From Streptococcus macacae NCTC 11558 (GTDB taxonomy: Bacteria; Bacillota; Bacilli; Lactobacillales; Streptococcaceae), in assembly GCF_000187995.2 (NCBI RefSeq), contig NZ_AEUW02000001.1, forward strand, positions 186,001 through 250,000: a stretch of DNA of 64,000 bases, in the 5' to 3' direction. Both the position numbers and the translations under genes were made by a program. The notes under the pieces were generated by a model that made no database searches, was not told where the DNA came from, and saw only the letters and a list, made by a program, of their open reading frames with translations. Positions 5,331-62,587 of the stretch are shown piece after piece (position 1 is the first letter of the stretch; every line of letters starts with the position of its first letter).

Positions 5331-7070
5331 TTAATGCATGTCTGCTATTTCAATATCAACTTGATTAGCATTTGTAGGGTCTTCAGTAAAAATCTTGAAG
5401 TCTTGTTTGTCTGATGAATTGAAACGTGCTACAGTATAAGACTGTCCATTTGGGAAAAGGAATTCAATACTATTTTTATCTGTTACTACCTTGATGTTAA
5501 TCTTATGCTGATTGGCTAAGCCACTGTCAGCTAGATAACCATTTCCATTGCCTAAAAGGCCATTATAGTAGTAATCAAAGCCTTTTTGTCCATCTATACC
5601 GTTCTTTAACTCTTCTGCAGTTTGTTTAACGTTATAGAGGCCATTGGTAGGATCGTAGTTAAAGCGGACATAGTCAGCTCCTTGCCAGATATCGAAATAA
5701 ATACGCCCCTTATAATTTCCTTTGCTATTAGAGAAAGTTAAGTTGTAGTATTGGTTAGCTGGCTGATCAGGAATGTCATATAGGCCATAGACATTGCCGT
5801 TGGTATCTTGACGATCAACCCATTCTTTGCCTTTTTCTGATTTAGGATTATTTTTATTAATACCTTTGTAGTTCTTTTTATTGCTTAAGGATGCTTCAGG
5901 GATTTTAAATGTCTGACTAATAGTCATATTGTTTTGAAGTTTTAGTTCCCGAGCACTTGAGTAAGAACCTAAGCGGCGAGCGTGGGGACTAGTGGCTTTT
6001 TGATCTGAGTGGACTCCGTTGGTGGAGTAGTTCCAATTACCGACCCAGCCAAAGGAAATTAGAGAAGCACTGGCGTGATCAATATGGTCACTCCCTGTAA
6101 AATTAGCCCCATAATAATCAGACCCCTGATCTAAACGTTTAACGTCTGTTTCAGCAACAAATAAGCCATTACTGTCTAGATGGCCGACAGTGTAGTAAGT
6201 TCCCGTTGTTTCTCCTTTTGAAGCGTCTTTAGCCCCAAAGAAAAGCACTTGTTTTGTTTGTCCATTGGGCATTTTCATTGTTTTGATGACAGGACATTCA
6301 ACAGGAGCATTTCCTTCCCAAGAACGCCCTCGAAAGAAGGTGCTGCTGCGTATTTTTGACTCGTCCTGATTATCAGCTTTAGACCAAGAAATACCGTTTT
6401 CAGATTGGTAAACACCAATATCAGAGCCTTCGGCTACATACATAATCAGTTTATTATTCCAATAAAAAACATAAGAATCTCGAAAATCAGTATGTTTTCC
6501 AGCTACCGTATGAGGGGAATTGATATCAGCTACTGGTTTGCCGTCATTTAAAACATGCTTAAAAGTTTTGCCGTTATCAGAAGAATAAGCAGCATAAATA
6601 TTTTGTTTTTGATCACTCTTGCGCAAACCTGTGAAGAAACTTACTTTAGCTCCTTTTGGAACTCCCTCTATATTTCCTGTATTGGTAACAATAGATCCTG
6701 TCCAAGCAGAGGCCCAACCTTCTTTGTCATCACCGCCTTTAGCTGCTAATGCACTGCTTTGTTCTGTATAATGAACAAAATCAGAAGTAGTTGTATGATA
6801 CCAGTCTTGACCTTGATGGCCAAAAGGGTTAGTTGCACCATCTGCTGAATGCAGAAAGTAGATATCATAGTAATGGCCTTCTTCATTCCAAGAAATTGTT
6901 TGTAAATCATTTGACCAGCCATGGGCAGTAGTTAAATGTGCTTTTTGAACATGCTCATCTGATGTCAGTGTTTCTGCTCTGCTAAACGGCTTGAATGTTG
7001 AAAAAGCGGTGCAGGCCAATAATGCAGCACCTGCAACAGCAATAGTCTTATTAAAACGACTCGTTTTCAT
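5331..7070 (-). CDS. secreted GH32 fructan (levan) hydrolase
   Basis: A 579-residue exported five-bladed beta-propeller glycoside hydrolase of family 32. The Lys/Arg-rich start and hydrophobic run of residues 1-32 form a signal peptide. Putative catalytic residues are Asp55 in HGWSNDLQ (nucleophile), Arg197-Asp198 in DFRDSY (transition-state Asp; Ser replaces the usual Pro of RDP) and Glu258 in VECPV (acid/base). A C-terminal beta-sandwich occupies roughly residues 370-579. There is no LPxTG anchor, so the enzyme should be released. It is divergent from the fructosyltransferase gene next door, recalling the sacB-levB pairing of Bacillus. Levan hydrolysis to short oligosaccharides is the best guess, but exact product specificity is unknown. 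AAGGAG precedes ATG 7070. Confidence 0.8.
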   Translation of the reverse strand: MKTSRFNKTIAVAGAALLACTAFSTFKPFSRAETLTSDEHVQKAHLTTAHGWSNDLQTISWNEEGHYYDIYFLHSADGATNPFGHQGQDWYHTTTSDFVHYTEQSSALAAKGGDDKEGWASAWTGSIVTNTGNIEGVPKGAKVSFFTGLRKSDQKQNIYAAYSSDNGKTFKHVLNDGKPVADINSPHTVAGKHTDFRDSYVFYWNNKLIMYVAEGSDIGVYQSENGISWSKADNQDESKIRSSTFFRGRSWEGNAPVECPVIKTMKMPNGQTKQVLFFGAKDASKGETTGTYYTVGHLDSNGLFVAETDVKRLDQGSDYYGANFTGSDHIDHASASLISFGWVGNWNYSTNGVHSDQKATSPHARRLGSYSSARELKLQNNMTISQTFKIPEASLSNKKNYKGINKNNPKSEKGKEWVDRQDTNGNVYGLYDIPDQPANQYYNLTFSNSKGNYKGRIYFDIWQGADYVRFNYDPTNGLYNVKQTAEELKNGIDGQKGFDYYYNGLLGNGNGYLADSGLANQHKINIKVVTDKNSIEFLFPNGQSYTVARFNSSDKQDFKIFTEDPTNANQVDIEIADMH

Positions 7071-7427: not shown

Positions 7428-10031
7428 ATGACAGTTCGCAAAAAAATGCATAAATCAAAGAAAAAATGGGTTGTCGTCAGTGTTGTGACAACAGCTCTAG
7501 CAATTGGTGCCCAAGGCATGGAGGTATCGGCTAAGGCTGAGGAAACTTCCGGCAATGAGACTTCAGCAGCTAAACAACTAGAAGCGCCAGCCAGCCAGAC
7601 TCAAACAGCCGCAGCAGAAACAAGTTCAGCTGCTAATAGCACTGAAAATGCAACAGTTCCATCACAAACAGAAGGAGTAAAGGACAATCAGTCTGCTGGA
7701 CAAACAGTGCCTACTGAACAGGCTGCAGCTCAGACAGAAAAAACTGAAAATAGTTCTAATGTGAAGGCTCCTAGTCAGACAGAGGCAGAAACAACAAATA
7801 AAACTACCCATCAAGCAGCATCTCCAGTAAGCGAGAATACTACAAAAACAACAGCCAATAGTTCTGAAAATACTGGAAAAACGACATTAAAGAATGCTTC
7901 AACAGAAATTACAGGAAAATCTGTATCTGATTCTTCAAGTAAAGGATCAAATGAGACTCAGACAAGTAAACCTGCAACGCCTTCGGGAAAGGATGATAAA
8001 GTTACAGAATCAACCTATAATCCTAAAACAGGCCTGACTGAATCTGCTTATCAAATTGCTCAAGAAGCAGGGCTTGATATTAGTAAGTTAACGGCTGTTC
8101 AAAAACAAGCTCTTAATCGGATGAAGATGAATCAAGAGTCTCAGTCAGGTACGCAAATGACTTATAAACAGTTTCAGGATATCGCTGATGTGTTAGTCAA
8201 ACAAGATCCTCGTTACGCTATTCCTTATTTTAAGGCAGATGCTATTCGAAATATGCCAGCAGCGACAACCAGAGATGCCCAAACAGGCCAAGTAGCTGAT
8301 CTTGATGTCTGGGATTCTTGGCCGGTACAAGATGTCAAAACAGGAGAAGTTGTGAATTGGAATGGCTATCAGCTGGTTGTTGCTATGATGGGAGTTCCTA
8401 ATACAAATGACAATCATATCTATCTCCTTTATAATAAGTACGGGGATAATGATTTAAAACATTGGAAAAATGCTGGGTCTATATTTGGCTATAATCAAAA
8501 TGCGCTTACTCAGCAATGGTCCGGTTCTGCAACTGTTAATGACGACGGCACCCTTCAGCTTTACTATACAAAAGTAGATACAAGTGATAATAATAGTAAT
8601 AATCAAAAACTAGCTTCTGCCACTTTAAAACTTTCTTTTGATGATGAAAATGTGCATATTGATTCGGTTGAAAATGATAAAGTGCTGACACCTAATGGTG
8701 GTGACGGTTATTATTATCAAAGCTATAAACAGTGGCGTTCCACCTATACTGGTGCTGATAATATTGCTATGCGTGACCCACATGTCATTGAGGATGATAA
8801 AGGAGATCGTTACTTGGTTTTTGAAGCTAGCACAGGCAGTCAAAACTATCAAGGCGAAGATCAAATTTACAACTGGAAAAATTATGGCGGTGACGCAGCT
8901 TACAATGTTAAAAGTTTATTTAGATTTCTAGAAGATTCTGATATGTATGAAAGGGCTAGTATTTCAAATGCTGCGATTGGTATTTTGAAACTTACAGGTG
9001 ATGTCAAATCTCCAGAAGTAGCTGAATACTATACGCCGCTTATCAGCTCACCAATGGTTAGTGATGAAATTGAACGTCCTAATGTTGTTAAATTGGGTGA
9101 TAAATATTATCTTTTTGCAGCATCACGCCTTAATCACGGAAGCAATAATGATGCTTGGCACCATGCTAATGATATTGTAGGGGATAATGTTGTTATGCTA
9201 GGCTATGTTTCAGATAAACTTACAGGCGGCTATAAACCTTTAAATAATAACGGAGCTGTTTTAACAGCTTCAGTTCCTGCTGACTGGCGGACAGCAACCT
9301 ATTCTTATTATGCAGTCCCAGTTGCAGGTTCTAAGGATAAGGTTTTGATCACAGCTTATATGACTAACCGCAATGAAGTGGCTGGTAAAGGTAAAAACAG
9401 TACTTGGGCACCTAGCTTTTTGCTGCAGATACTGCCTGATAATACAACGAAAGTTCTCGCTAAAATGACTCAGCAGGGAGATTGGATTTGGGATGAATCC
9501 AGTGAAACACAAGATACTGTTGGTACTTTAGATACTGCTCATTTACCTGGTGAAAACGACGGTTATATTGATTGGAATGTTATTGGCGGCTATGGTTTGA
9601 AACCGCATACTCCTGATTCAGGCCAAGACCAAAATCCTACTGACAATAAGAAGCAAGATAATATTATAACAATTAATTATAACTTTAATTTTTCCGGCAG
9701 CTCTGTCCTGACTAAGCAGGATATCAAAGACTTTATTAAATGGCTTGCTCCTTATCTGACAGGTGATGTCAATAATAACAATAATAACAATAATCTAAAT
9801 GTCAAAGACAATACCGTTACCATTAATATCAATTATAATGTAGCTAATAAATCGCAAGATGAAACAAAGTCTAAAAAGGATATCAGTCAAGAAAAGAAAG
9901 AATCTAAACTCAATACTATTGATTCTAATCATGCGCAGAAAGCTTCTGTAAATCCTCTTTTAGCTCCTTTCGCTCTTGGTTTGACACTTGTATCCGGCTG
10001 GTTTGGCTTTAAAAAATTTAAGAAAGACTAG
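7428..10031 (+). CDS. ftf: fructosyltransferase (levansucrase/inulosucrase), GH68
   Basis: Extracellular enzyme that splits sucrose and polymerises fructose into levan or inulin. Order: signal peptide (residues about 1-34, [17 protein letters not shown] then Ala-x-Ala), a long Ser/Thr/Glu-rich spacer to about residue 190, then the GH68 propeller. Catalytic residues by motif are Asp296 in VWDSWP, Asp450 in MRDPH and Glu549 in DEIERPN. After the propeller comes a linker with unusual strand-like repeats ([17 protein letters not shown]) and an Asn run. It ends in a hydrophobic stretch plus a KKFKKD tail without LPxTG, so attachment may be through the membrane segment only. At 867 residues it is longer than the S. 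mutans enzyme as I recall it. AAAGGA precedes ATG 7428. Confidence 0.93.
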
Positions 10032-57880: not shown

Positions 57881-59830
57881 ATGATTAAAATCACTTTTCC
57901 AGATGGTGCTGTACGAGAATTTGAATCTGGAGTTACAACCTTTGAGATCGCAGATAGTATTAGCAAGTCTCTTGCTAAGAAAGCTTTAGCCGGTAAATTT
58001 AATGGGAAACTCATTGATACCACACGTGCTATCACGCAAGACGGCAGTATTGAAATTGTGACACCTGACCATGACGATGCCCTGCCAATTCTTCGTCATT
58101 CAGCAGCTCATCTTTTTGCCCAAGCTGCCCGCCGTCTCTTCCCAGACATTCACTTAGGTGTCGGTCCAGCCATCCAAGATGGCTTTTACTATGATACGGA
58201 CAATCAAGCAGGGCAAATTTCTAATGAAGATCTTCCCCGCATTGAGGAAGAAATGAAGAAAATTGTTAAGGAGAACCTTCCATCAATTCGTGAAGAAGTT
58301 ACTAAGGATGAAGCCCGTGAAATCTTCAAAAACGATCCTTACAAACTCGAATTGATTGAAGAGCATTCAGAGGACGAAGGCGGTCTAACAATTTACCGCC
58401 AAGGTGAATATGTCGACCTTTGCCGCGGGCCGCATGTGCCATCAACTGGCCGTATCCAAGTCTTTCACTTGCTCAATGTAGCAGGGGCTTACTGGCGCGG
58501 AGACAGTGATAATGCTATGATGCAGCGTATCTATGGTACTGCTTGGTTTGATAAGAAAGACCTCAAGGCTTATCTCAAACGTCTTGAAGAAGCCAAAGAA
58601 CGCGATCACCGCAAGCTCGGAAAAGAACTTGATCTTTTTATGATTTCGCAAGAAGTCGGACAAGGCCTGCCATTTTGGCTGCCAGATGGAGCAACCATTC
58701 GCCGTATCATTGAGCGTTACATCACTGATAAAGAAGTAGCTTCAGGCTATCAGCACGTTTATACTCCGCCAATTGCTTCTGTGGATCTCTACAAAACTTC
58801 AGGTCACTGGGAACATTACCGTGAAGATATGTTTCCAACTATGGATATGGGAGATGGTGAAGCATTTGTGCTGCGTCCCATGAATTGTCCTCATCATATT
58901 GAAGTTTATAAGAATCATGTACATTCTTATCGTGAATTGCCCATCCGCATAGCAGAGCTTGGCATGATGCACCGTTATGAAAAATCAGGTGCCCTGTCAG
59001 GACTTCAGCGTGTACGTGAAATGACCTTGAATGATGGACACACTTTTGTTGCTCTTGATCAAGTGAAAGAGGAGTTCAAGCGGACGCTTCAATTAATTAT
59101 TGATGTTTACCAAGACTTTAACTTGACAGATTACAGTTTTCGTTTGTCTTACCGGGATCCTAACGATACCCATAAATATTTTGATGATGATGACATGTGG
59201 GAAAAATCTCAAACTATGCTCAAAGCTGCTATGGATGATATGGGACTTGATTACTATGAAGCAGAAGGTGAGGCAGCCTTTTACGGACCCAAATTGGACA
59301 TCCAAGTGAAAACTGCTCTTGGTAATGATGAGACCTTATCAACCATTCAATTGGACTTTTTGCTGCCCGAACGTTTTGAGTTGACTTATGTTGGTGCTGA
59401 TGGTGAAGAACACCGTCCTGTCATGATTCACCGCGGGATTGTTTCAACCATGGAACGTTTTACTGCTTATCTTATTGAAACTTATAAAGGTGCTTTTCCG
59501 ACTTGGCTGGCTCCTCATCAAGTTACCGTTATTCCAATCTCAAACGAAGCTCACATTGATTATGCTTGGGAGGTAGCTAAGGAACTGCGCAACCGTGGTA
59601 TTCGTGTAGATGTGGATGACCGTAATGAAAAAATGCAGTACAAAATTCGCCAAAGCCAAACCAAGAAGATCCCTTACCAACTTATTGTTGGTGATAAGGA
59701 AATGGAAGATGGCACGGTCAATGTTCGCCGCTATGGCAGCAAACAAACGCATACCGAAACTATGGCAGAATTTACCAAAAATATCCTTCAAGATATTGAA
59801 CGTAAATCTAGACCAACTGATGCTGAATAA
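57881..59830 (+). CDS. thrS: threonyl-tRNA synthetase
   Basis: A 649-residue class II synthetase: TGS domain (1-62), editing domain with [15 protein letters not shown] and [12 protein letters not shown], catalytic core with zinc/active-site motifs ([26 protein letters not shown] as motif 2, [12 protein letters not shown] as motif 3), and anticodon-binding domain from about 545. The C-terminus is [21 protein letters not shown] second, different version of this end lies at 61975-62037, beyond the retron. AAAGGAG precedes ATG 57881. Controlled by the T-box upstream. Confidence 0.97.
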
Positions 59831-59836
59831 GAAAAG

Positions 59837-59862
59837 AAAGAAGTCCATGTGGGCTTCTTTTT
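59837..59862 (+). terminator. terminator after thrS (first copy)
   Basis: AAGAAG...CTTCTTTTT hairpin around TCCATGTGGG. The same sequence with small changes recurs at 62043-62069. Confidence 0.7.
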
Positions 59863-59877
59863 GATGTGATTTTGTGC

Positions 59878-59883
59878 TATAGT
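59878..59883 (+). promoter_or_regulatory. extended -10 of the retron RNA
   Basis: TGCTATAGT with box TATAGT at 59878-59883. Its predicted start is 59890-59891, exactly where the a1 arm begins. Confidence 0.5.
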
Positions 59884-59889
59884 TACACT

Positions 59890-60030
59890 AACGTATAACT
59901 AGAATTTATTGTTTGTGTATCCGTAAACAATGATAAAGTGAACTGGGCGGCTAGTTTGATTTATTGCACCGGCTGAGAAATCGCTTTTATCAACGCTCGA
60001 CAAGTCTCGCATAATGAGTAGTTATATGTT
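59890..60030 (+). ncRNA. candidate retron msr-msd RNA
   Basis: AACGTATAACTA at 59890-59901 is complementary to TAGTTATATGTT at 60019-60030 (12 pairs, one G-U), giving the a1/a2 helix that joins both ends. After a1 comes G59902, a candidate branch guanosine. A first stem-loop follows, TTATTGTTT (59906-59914) with AAACAATGA (59925-59933), then a second, AACTGG (59941-59946) with CTAGTT (59951-59956). The msd part (about 59957-60018) has a weaker imperfect stem, GAGA/TCTC and TCG/CGA between 59975 and 60008. Size and layout, and position just before the RT, fit retron RNAs. Confidence 0.7.
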
Positions 60031-60056
60031 TTTTATTGCACATTCAGGAGAAAAAT

Positions 60057-60992
60057 GTGATTTTCAAAGAAATAAAAGATCTTAATCATTTATCCAGTAG
60101 ATTGGGAATTGATAGAAATATATTAAATAATTTGTTAAAACAAAAGTATCGTGAAAAGCTTTATGATGTTTATAATATTCCTAAAAAAGACGGTTCAGAT
60201 AGACAAATTTGTGCCCCTAAGGAACCATTAAAGAGTGTTCAAAAAAAGATTGCAGAGCTTTTATGGCAAGAACAATTATGGATAAATCATGAAAAAGAAG
60301 AGAAATATATAAAAGATAAGAAAATGTTAAGAGAGGAAAATTTTCGTACACAAACGTTTTCTGAGGCTATTGAAGATATGAATAGTGGCTACAAACTGAC
60401 CTTAGAGACCAAAAAATATTATAGATTTCAAAACGATATCATCCAAGCTTTTGAAAAGGGTAAGAGTATTCTTACGAATGCCCAAGTTCACAGAAATAAA
60501 AAGTATATTGTTAGTATAGATTTAAAAGATTTTTTTGATAGTTTTACATTTTATCGTGTCAAAGAATACTTTGAAAAGAATAGGGATTTTCAACTATCTA
60601 AAGAAATTGCAATGACTTTAGCTAACCTTGTTTGCTATAAATCTAAATTACCCCAAGGAGCTCCTAGTTCGCCAATTCTAACGAATATGATTGGAAGAAT
60701 TTTAGATTCTCGTATTTTAAAAATTTGTAAAAAATACCGTCTAAAATATACTAGATATGCAGACGATATGACTTTTTCAACAAATGATGATGTAATCATA
60801 AAAAAATTGGATGATTTTTTATCTGATCTTAATAGTATTATTGACAATGCTAGCTTTAAGATTAACGAAAAGAAAACAAGAGTAAGTTATTGGAATTCTA
60901 GGCAATTAGTAACAGGATTGGTAGTTAATAAGAGAGTTAATACTCCAAGAGAATATTATAAAGCAACTAACTGGACGTTTTGCATTCATTAA
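60057..60992 (+). CDS. retron reverse transcriptase (N-terminal part of a split RT-TOPRIM protein)
   Basis: 311 residues as it stands. RT features in order: IPKKDGSDRQICAPKEPLKS (RT1), KSILTNAQVHRNKKYIVSID with the retron NAxxH box, catalytic Asp in SIDLKDFFDSF (motif A), LPQGAPSSPILTN, YTRYADDMTFS (motif C, YADD) and RQLVTGLVVNKRV with the retron VTG box. It copies msd into msDNA using the upstream RNA. The start is GTG 60057, with AGGAG six bases before; a TTG at 60036 lies upstream of the ribosome site. The frame ends early at REYYKATNWTFCIH; continuation RFAFINQVERFNAE is in the next frame. Very AT-rich compared with thrS, which suggests transfer. Confidence 0.88.
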   Translation: MIFKEIKDLNHLSSRLGIDRNILNNLLKQKYREKLYDVYNIPKKDGSDRQICAPKEPLKSVQKKIAELLWQEQLWINHEKEEKYIKDKKMLREENFRTQTFSEAIEDMNSGYKLTLETKKYYRFQNDIIQAFEKGKSILTNAQVHRNKKYIVSIDLKDFFDSFTFYRVKEYFEKNRDFQLSKEIAMTLANLVCYKSKLPQGAPSSPILTNMIGRILDSRILKICKKYRLKYTRYADDMTFSTNDDVIIKKLDDFLSDLNSIIDNASFKINEKKTRVSYWNSRQLVTGLVVNKRVNTPREYYKATNWTFCIH

Positions 60993-61941
60993 TCAAGTAG
61001 AACGATTTAATGCTGAGTGCATGAATTTAGAACAGACAGAATTTTCAGCAAAGGGAAAGACTTTTCAACGTTTTTTATTTTATAAAAATTTTTATGGTGC
61101 TGAAAAACCAGTACTTATTACCGAAGGTAAAACGGATATACGTTATATAAGAGCTGCTTTAAAAAAATTACATAATAAATATCCTAGTCTTATTACTCTT
61201 GAAGAAGGCGGAACGGCCAAGTATAAACTTACTTTTTTTAAAAAGTCAGACATAACTGAACAATATTTAGATTTGAATAAACATGGAGGCTCTATATTTG
61301 AAAAAGTTTGGAATCTTTATCACGATAATCAGATTTTTAGAAAGAAAAATTTTAATAACATCTATGATTATTTCCAAAGAATTGGCTCAAGATACAAGTC
61401 CCCTGTTATCATGATCTTTGATAACGAACTGGACGTGGAAGGTAGTCCTATCCAACAATTTATTAATAAATTTGGCTCAAATGCTAAAATAATATTTGAT
61501 ACAGAATATGAAGAAAATATTCATTTAAAGCGTCAGGAATTAAAGCAAGCAGGAAAAACTAGGCAACAAATAGATTCTGAAATAAAAAAGTTTCAAAAAG
61601 ATTTTACTGAAGATAAAAAAACTCAACTTAAAACAAAACTTAGAAAAAATGAATGTATCCATTTAAAGGACAATCTTTATTTAATGTTAATCCCGTTAAT
61701 AAAACCTGAACAAAGTAAATCTGATATAGAAGCTTTACTATTGCCAGAAGATATTGAAAAAATAAATCAAAAATTTGGAAAACAGTTTAATCCTTCTGAA
61801 AGGGAATTTATTGAAAAAGATAATTATAGTAAGGATAAATTATCAAAGCAGATAATGTATAGTTATCAAAATATTTCCTTTGAAAATTTTAAAAAATTGT
61901 TTGAGAATATAGAAAAAATTATTAATCATAATATTACATAG
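60970..61941 (+). pseudogene. TOPRIM-domain C-terminal part of the retron RT, out of frame
   Basis: From 60970 the frame reads TGRFAFINQVERFNAECMNL without a stop, so it is the direct continuation of the RT. An ATG at 61021 gives 306 residues but has no clear ribosome site. The TOPRIM fold is marked by VLITEGKTDIRYIRAAL (Glu at 61123-61125) and VIMIFDNELDVEG (Asp at 61420-61422). The rest is Lys/Glu-rich helix. In RT-TOPRIM retrons (Ec67/Eco2 type, type I-C in the Mestre scheme as I recall) this domain is the likely toxic effector. With the indel repaired the fusion would have about 627 residues. Separate translation from 61021 cannot be excluded. Confidence 0.75.
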
Positions 61942-61974: not shown

Positions 61975-62069
61975 GAGTCGGCAGAAAGCATCTTGGCCGA
62001 TATCGCCCGTAAATCAAAGCCAGCTGATGCTGAATAGGTAAAAGAAGAAGTCCATGTGGCTTCTTTTTT
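61975..62069 (+). repeat. second, diverged copy of the thrS 3' end and terminator
   Basis: 61975-62037 encodes ESAESILADIARKSKPADAE and TAG, aligning over its full length to the last 20 residues of thrS (12 identical). The following AAAGAAGAAGTCCATGTGGC then CTTCTTTTTT repeats the thrS terminator. There is no upstream coding part, so it is the leftover or donated end of a thrS gene that now flanks the retron. Confidence 0.85.
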
Positions 62070-62173
62070 GCTACGATTCTTAACAAAAAATTCTTATTTT
62101 GCCAGCGAAACTTGCTTGAAAGTGGGATAAGAATTCCCTATAATGTAATTAATTTAAAAAAGGTAGGAAAAGT

Positions 62174-62587
62174 ATGATAAGTGAAACGATTCTTCTATTG
62201 AGAAAAAAGTTAGGTTATTCCCAGGAAAAATTAGCTGAAAAGGTAGGCGTATCTCGTCAGACCCTTAGTAAATGGGAACTGGGGGAAAGCTTACCGGATA
62301 TTGTCTCTTCAAACCATTTGGCAGAGATTTTTGGTATCAGCTTGGATGAGCTGGTTAACGGAGATGAATCTCCTTTTGCAGGCAAAGCCAAAGAGGGTAA
62401 ATATATCTTTGGAACAGTAACGGTTGGTGAAAAGGGACAAATCGTCATTCCTGCACAGGCAAGGAAACTATTTGATATCAAAAAGGGCGATAACCTTATG
62501 GTTTTGGGGGATATCAATCAAGGCTTAGCCTTATTGGACAGCGATTTCTTTGTTCAAGCTTTTGAAGAAATGGGGATACTAAAATGA
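62174..62587 (+). CDS. XRE-family HTH plus AbrB-like DNA-binding protein
   Basis: 137 residues with two DNA-binding modules: an N-terminal XRE helix-turn-helix (SQEKLAEKVGVSRQTLSKWELG, about residues 17-38) and a C-terminal SpoVT/AbrB swapped-hairpin domain (GTVTVGEKGQIVIPAQARKLFDIKKGDNLMVLGD, about residues 79-112). The combination usually represses a short operon that includes the adjacent membrane protein. GTAGGAAAAG precedes ATG 62174; it overlaps the next gene by 4 bases. Not evidently part of the retron. Confidence 0.88.
   Translation: MISETILLLRKKLGYSQEKLAEKVGVSRQTLSKWELGESLPDIVSSNHLAEIFGISLDELVNGDESPFAGKAKEGKYIFGTVTVGEKGQIVIPAQARKLFDIKKGDNLMVLGDINQGLALLDSDFFVQAFEEMGILK

What the first reader, a model, noticed from the sequence alone, without database searches (positions are those of the whole stretch)
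59878..61941. RT-TOPRIM retron at the end of thrS in a streptococcus
Directly visible: promoter, RNA with pairing ends, RBS-GTG start, and an RT with NAxxH (NAQVH), YADD and VTG boxes. A TOPRIM continuation (ITEGKTD and FDNELD) follows. Established knowledge: retrons make msDNA and many act as abortive anti-phage systems; RT-TOPRIM fusions are known from Ec67/Eco2. Inference: this is a Gram-positive member of that type, possibly undescribed, with the RT fused to its effector.
Basis: partly seen in the sequence, partly recalled or inferred. Interest (0 to 1): 0.92.

Follow-up and report, generated by a model that had tools for sequence, protein, structure and literature searches.

The report
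Broken Eco2-type retron behind thrS
Right behind the essential gene thrS, this streptococcus carries a retron (an RNA gene plus a DNA-copying enzyme with a nuclease part) of an already known, likely anti-phage family, but its protein gene is split into two reading frames, so this copy probably no longer works.

Summary
At 59890-60030 there is a retron RNA gene with 12-bp pairing ends, followed by an RT (60057-60992) and a Toprim part (61021-61941). PADLOC and NCBIfam place both in the type I-C / Ec67 (Eco2) RT-Toprim family; group II intron models score far worse. The RNA covaries, and a model built from 17 streptococcal copies also finds it upstream of RTs in 16 of 33 loci not used to build it. 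But this copy is not a fused, working gene: RT and Toprim lie in different frames, and the thumb region after the VTG box is 74 nt shorter than in all 15 relatives measured. A second species carries a more decayed copy at the same place behind thrS. The family is not new in Gram-positives: NCBI annotates it across Firmicutes, and Retron I-C is reported in S. mutans. So this is a degraded, divergent member of a known kind. Less ordinary: the retron sits between two thrS 3' ends (83% over 71 nt), the S. orisasini copy is also flanked by a 59-nt repeat (14 of 16 copies tested have none of note), and 92-93% identical cassettes occur at unrelated sites in different species. How such retrons move is the open question.

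The parts
57881..59830 (+). thrS, threonine--tRNA ligase, intact host gene
   Evidence: TIGR00418 E=1.3e-228
59792..59871 (+). left copy of the thrS 3' end repeat
   Evidence: 80 nt, 78% to 61999-62078; 71 nt at 83%
59835..59862 (+). thrS terminator-like hairpin just upstream of the retron
   Evidence: 2 found in the scanned stretch against 0.6 expected
59875..59883 (+). extended -10 promoter element, by eye
   Evidence: sequence; not listed by the consensus scan
59890..60030 (+). retron msr-msd RNA gene; a1 59890-59901, presumed branch G 59902, msr hairpin 59908-59931, a2 60019-60030
   Evidence: covariation; model R1 hit 91.6 bits, E=9.6e-18 (the window is one of the 17 sequences of the model)
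60047..60051 (+). ribosome binding site
   Evidence: sequence
60057..60992 (+). retron reverse transcriptase part, 311 aa, ends by frame change inside the thumb
61021..61941 (+). Toprim effector part, 306 aa, in another frame than the RT
61999..62078 (+). second, displaced thrS 3' end, contiguous with the downstream genes as behind thrS in related species

Best explanation
Behind thrS lies a type I-C (Ec67/Eco2-family) retron - RNA gene, reverse transcriptase and Toprim parts - whose RT-Toprim gene is split into two frames, so this copy is probably a decayed and non-working remnant of an anti-phage system. In intact relatives the RNA would fold by its a1/a2 ends, the RT would copy the msd part into DNA joined to a G behind a1, and the msDNA would hold the fused protein inactive until a phage factor damages it, after which the Toprim part cuts RNA and stops the infection (model proposed for Eco2, inferred here). 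In this copy a 74-nt shortfall after the VTG box removes a conserved stretch of the RT thumb and changes the frame (shown), so neither msDNA nor a regulated effector is expected (inferred). The element sits between two thrS 3' ends (shown), which points to its arrival, or a later recombination, at the thrS end (inferred).
For: Family: PADLOC RT-Toprim_I-C E=1.5e-112 and 2.8e-60; NCBIfam retron_Ec67_fus E=6.8e-100 and 9.2e-40, against 2.7e-15 for group II intron RT; Toprim piece matches the solved Eco2 protein (9lm3, 9i2f) E=1.4e-17. RNA: 10 pairs with changes on both sides, 0 of 500 shuffles, slid partners far lower; model R1 finds it in 16 of 33 related loci outside its own training set, and the 17 genus genomes with the Toprim each have the RNA, with no further genome of 284 matching. 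Break: the distance from VTG to LxGRF is 44 residues (132 nt) in 15 of 15 relatives and 58 nt in the window (alignment); 14 of the 17 species copies are one open frame, while the window, G121 and G253 are broken. A relative of the same branch, P0244, keeps the missing stretch. The window RNA has the weakest folding z-score of the 17 (-0.86 against -1.74 to -4.99). Eco2 mechanism: PMC12405507.
Against: No experiment. RNA gene, RBS, RT active-site motif and the recognisable Toprim motifs are kept, so the break may be recent, strain-specific or an assembly error; one protein cluster (P0001) with three contigs bears the same RT piece, which speaks against a single-read error but may be one strain. 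A relative from an ENA contig (P0241, 83%) starts at the same methionine as the Toprim piece, which would fit a conserved split as well as parallel decay. The low folding score is weak evidence, since z-scores scatter widely. One of the five covariation measures (further pair types) did not exceed the shuffles (128 of 500). The Eco2 catalytic lysine named in the paper (K562) could not be assigned in the alignments.
Confidence: 0.85

Rival explanations
1. The split is functional: RT and Toprim are now two separately translated proteins of one operon, a two-gene variant of type I-C.
For: The Toprim piece starts with ATG 28 nt after the RT stop and begins at a position equal to about Eco2 residue 340 (extrapolated), close to the N337-S586 Toprim truncation of Eco2, which was toxic when expressed (PMC12405507). 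P0241 (83%, 312 aa) begins at the same Met. The motifs of both parts are kept.
Against: The RT piece lacks a thumb stretch kept in 15 of 15 relatives measured; the ATG has only a weak GAG upstream (by eye); free Eco2 Toprim inhibits E. coli growth, so uncoupled synthesis would be harmful. In S. ferus a further relative is cut down to 174 aa without the EGxTD motif, which looks like decay.
Confidence: 0.07
2. A +1 ribosomal frameshift joins the two parts into a fused protein.
For: The Toprim frame is open upstream of the RT stop for about 65 nt.
Against: No slippery site seen by eye; 14 of 17 species copies need none; the fused product would still lack the conserved thumb stretch and have a shorter linker (52 residues from LxGRF to EGxTD against 88-120 in 15 relatives).
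Confidence: 0.03
3. The break is a sequencing or assembly error and the retron is intact in the cell.
For: Frame breaks in single genomes are often errors (general knowledge).
Against: The difference is 74 nt, not one base in a homopolymer; the same RT piece stands for three contigs, and the same Toprim start is in a 27-kb contig (P0242).
Confidence: 0.05

Closest known systems
Retron-Eco2 (Ec67), E. coli, type I-C
   Same: RT then Toprim in the same order; RNA with a1/a2 ends and a short msr hairpin; Toprim E374, D378, D460 and E515 have counterparts in the alignment.
   Different: One 586-residue protein in Eco2; here two frames, thumb stretch missing. The DxD reads DNE here and in the streptococcal relatives, S513 aligns with D, and K562 could not be assigned. 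The window has a few dozen extra residues in the Toprim part and an extra segment before the RT core, as some relatives do.
NCBIfam NF038237 'retron Ec67 family RNA-directed DNA polymerase/endonuclease' in Streptococcus (S. sanguinis, S. orisasini, S. mutans, S. gordonii, S. oralis)
   Same: Homologous RT, Toprim and RNA gene; the 10 intact relatives given to (of 14) pass the 450-bit cut-off.
   Different: The two window pieces score 335 and 137 bits, each below the cut-off; the full-length RTs compared are about 44-54% identical and the nearest Toprim over most of its length about 31%.
G253 remnant behind thrS (same genus, unnamed species)
   Same: Same place behind thrS; RNA and RT start 83% identical over 464 nt, more than thrS itself (75.6%).
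   Different: RT match ends after about 97 residues, IS-like ends in the promoter region (by eye), Toprim tail on another contig.

Membership tests
Retron (RT class) | RT with NAxxH and VTG boxes, closest to retron RTs | tested here: met
   Motifs read directly (that they define retron RTs is recalled); best families
Retron | msr-msd RNA upstream with pairing a1/a2 ends and branch G | tested here: met
   a1/a2 and msr hairpin covary; model hit. The branch G is presumed by position only.
Retron | makes msDNA | not testable with these tools
   needs nucleic acid from the strain
Retron type I-C (RT-Toprim) | RT and Toprim in one polypeptide | tested here: not met
   two frames, 74 nt short at the junction; met in 14 of 17 species copies
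Retron type I-C (RT-Toprim) | Toprim homologous to Eco2 with EGxTD and acidic DxD-like motif | tested here: met
   the motif is DNE, as in streptococcal relatives; catalytic lysine not assigned
Retron type I-C (RT-Toprim) | anti-phage activity by RNA cleavage | not testable with these tools
   reported for Eco2 (PMC12405507)
Group II intron / Abi RT | RT scores best with these classes | tested here: not met
   group II RT 2.7e-15 against 6.8e-100 for Ec67; no Abi or UG model among the 25 best PADLOC families shown of 46
Diversity-generating retroelement RT | RT groups with DGR RTs | not tested
   no DGR model was among the families listed; no tree was built

The most novel reading that the evidence does not exclude
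Type I-C retrons of streptococci spread as bare cassettes, from the extended -10 promoter of the RNA gene to the last codons of RT-Toprim, that land just behind the 3' ends of transcription units and duplicate that 3' end, as gene-end integration does, although they carry no recombinase of their own; the thrS copy is caught with both ends still visible.
Probability: 0.15. Interest if true: 0.65.

Novelty: new member of a known kind. Interest (0 to 1): 0.35.

Why it matters
As a retron it adds a divergent, decayed streptococcal branch to a family with a solved Eco2 structure, and the covariance model made here links the RNA of the Streptococcus copies to RNAs upstream of RTs in bacilli, clostridia, proteobacteria and a cyanobacterium. 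The wider point is mobility: I found no account of how retrons get from place to place in what I searched and read. Two species with a retron at the same thrS end, duplicated host 3' ends around 2 of 16 copies tested, and 92-93% identical cassettes at unrelated loci make that question testable by comparative genomics.

Tried and rejected
Rfam found no known RNA family at the locus (three hits far below their gathering scores), so a model was built instead. A first RNA alignment (A5) had wrong coordinates for the G253 row; it was dropped and redone (A6). A first measure of the junction counted from an optional Q before LxGRF and missed L055; it was redone, and the figures here are those. Full-length close relatives: none among the best 120 (listed of 6864) is closer than about half identical to the window RT; the close relatives found (P0002, P0241, P0243, P0244, P0245) are all shorter than a full gene, but searches with the pieces list only proteins up to about 540 aa, so intact close copies may exist unseen. 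Whole-thrS import was considered: thrS is 80.7% identical to G176, in line with the rest of the matched window (65-84%), so no sign of a foreign thrS. Only the stretch just behind the retron is unusually close to G176 (85-93%), so the displaced thrS end may have come with a later recombination rather than with the retron; left open. A promoter with a -35 was not found. Flanking repeats were absent or chance-level in 14 of 16 copies tested (G253 not tested), which limits the mobility reading.

Full report
What is there. The window lies in a 1.92 Mb single-contig Streptococcus genome (genus from the relatives, species not established). thrS (57881-59830) ends with a terminator-like hairpin (59835-59862). 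Six bases after an extended -10 element (59875-59883, by eye) starts an RNA gene, 59890-60030, whose ends pair over 12 bp. An RBS and a GTG start (60057) open a 311-residue reverse transcriptase with NAQVH, YADD and VTG. A 306-residue Toprim part follows (61021-61941) in another frame, and 57 nt after it begins a second copy of the thrS 3' end (61999-62078).

Family. Both parts match PADLOC RT-Toprim_I-C best (1.5e-112 and 2.8e-60) and NCBIfam retron_Ec67_fus (6.8e-100 and 9.2e-40); each piece alone stays below the 450-bit NCBI cut-off. The Toprim piece aligns with the solved Eco2 protein, with counterparts of E374, D378, D460 and E515 kept, D462 replaced by E as in streptococcal relatives, and S513 by D; the lysine K562 named in the Eco2 paper could not be assigned. 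Group II intron and Abi placements are not supported; DGR was not tested by a tree.

The RNA. Seventeen RNAs (window, the G253 remnant, 15 relatives) were aligned. For the a1/a2 helix and the msr hairpin, 84.5% of cells pair, 10 of 21 pairs have changes on both sides, and 0 of 500 shuffles reach these; one measure, further pair types, does not exceed the shuffles (128 of 500). Relatedness can inflate such counts, but partners slid by 1-3 columns fall to 26-57% paired. A covariance model from these 17 finds one significant place in the 64-kb window, the RNA gene (E=9.6e-18; the only other hit has E=0.89). It matches 21 of 38 related loci tried (of 160 fetched), each match lying upstream of the RT match; five of the 21 (L137, L140, L143, L146, L188) are streptococci whose RNA is in the model, so 16 of 33 independent loci match, from bacilli and clostridia to proteobacteria and a cyanobacterium, the weakest at E=0.002; 17 of the 38 gave none. 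In the genus it matches 17 of 284 genomes, which are the 17 that supplied the model; what this search adds is that none of the other 267 has one, under stricter filters. The Toprim search gave the same 17 of 284; the RT search gave 22 of 284, the 5 extra hits being only 27-39% identical.

The break. In 15 of 15 relatives the distance from VTG to LxGRF is 44 residues (132 nt); in the window it is 58 nt, 74 nt less and not a multiple of three. The lost stretch is thumb sequence that is recognisable as far as Eco2 and is present in P0244 of the same branch. The linker from LxGRF to EGxTD is also shorter (52 residues against 88-120). Of 17 species copies, 14 are one open frame; the window, G121 (L051, two ORFs) and G253 are broken. 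The window branch is divergent: the full-length RTs compared are about 44-54% identical, and the nearest Toprim about 31% over most of its length. Its closest relatives are short: P0002 (S. suis, 86%, 712-bp contig), P0243 (S. suis, partial), P0245 (S. ferus, 174 aa), P0241 and P0244 (ENA contigs of 2-3 kb). The window RNA has the weakest folding z-score of the 17, a weak hint that the msd is decaying as well.

How it would work when intact. Eco2 forms a trimer of msDNA and RT-Toprim that is self-inhibited; the Toprim part is an RNase, Toprim truncations inhibit growth, and escaper phages carry mutations in DenB, which is thought to degrade msDNA (PMC12405507: abstract, first part of the Results, and the Toprim and DenB sections). 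By homology the intact streptococcal copies likely work the same way; nothing here tests it.

The place. Behind thrS in G134 and G176 the downstream genes follow directly, so the retron lies inside what is elsewhere one intergenic space, with the thrS 3' end on both sides (71 nt, 83%). G253 has a retron remnant behind thrS too, 83% identical over 464 nt although thrS is only 75.6% identical, with IS-like ends in its promoter region and its Toprim tail on another contig. In the window, the matched parts from 61984 to about 64542 are 85-93% identical to G176 while the other matched parts are 65-84%, so a later recombination has probably touched this side. Elsewhere in the genus seven copies sit between rnmV and ksgA (rnmV named by model in three of them, ksgA in one; the rest by likeness) and five between a CynX-like transporter (in the one tested, below the model's cut-off) and an unnamed 197-residue gene. 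The cassettes of L048 (first site) and of L049 and L051 (second site) are 92% and 93% identical; the similarity starts at the RNA or about 20 nt before it and ends 15-18 nt before the end of the gene, with no other same-strand similarity over 60 nt in 1.5 kb on either side. Flanking direct repeats stand out in 2 of 16 copies: the window and L050 of S. orisasini (59 nt, 93%, beside an unnamed transcript-like repeat found in 3 of 78 genomes; its fold is not better than shuffles, z -1.14).

Known or new. RT-Toprim fusions are named across Firmicutes by NCBI, and Retron I-C is among the systems found in S. mutans isolates (PMC12964521, two passages). No paper in the held library has both 'retron' and 'thrS' as whole words. 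Verdict: a degraded, divergent member of a known kind; the mobility pattern is the part worth following.

Noticed in passing
window 59792-59871 and 61999-62078: Two thrS 3' ends flank the retron. In some searches and 68 other genomes with two matches show split hits, terminator-like pieces or a second thrS-like place elsewhere (G097, G219), not this arrangement.
   Followed up: partly
window 61984 to about 64542 (G000:C1 to 250542): A patch behind the retron is 85-93% identical to G176, other matched parts 65-84%: a likely recombination import whose left edge abuts the retron.
   Followed up: partly
L048, L049, L051: 92-93% identical retron cassettes at two unrelated chromosomal sites in different species, with sharp edges.
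   Followed up: partly
L050:5379-5437 and 7768-7826: S. orisasini retron flanked by 59-nt direct repeats; the neighbourhood looks like a defence island with AbiP2, an ATPase with a DUF3800 protein, and a type I restriction gene.
   Followed up: partly
L058 between 4863 and 5027, and L059 about 5451-5582: G253: IS-like ends in the retron promoter region and beside the separated Toprim tail; the retron seems to have been torn apart by IS copies (by eye).
   Followed up: no
window 62174-62587: Cro/CI-type HTH protein with an AbrB/MazE-like C-terminal domain, followed by a small hydrophobic-looking protein without a family above cut-off.
   Followed up: no
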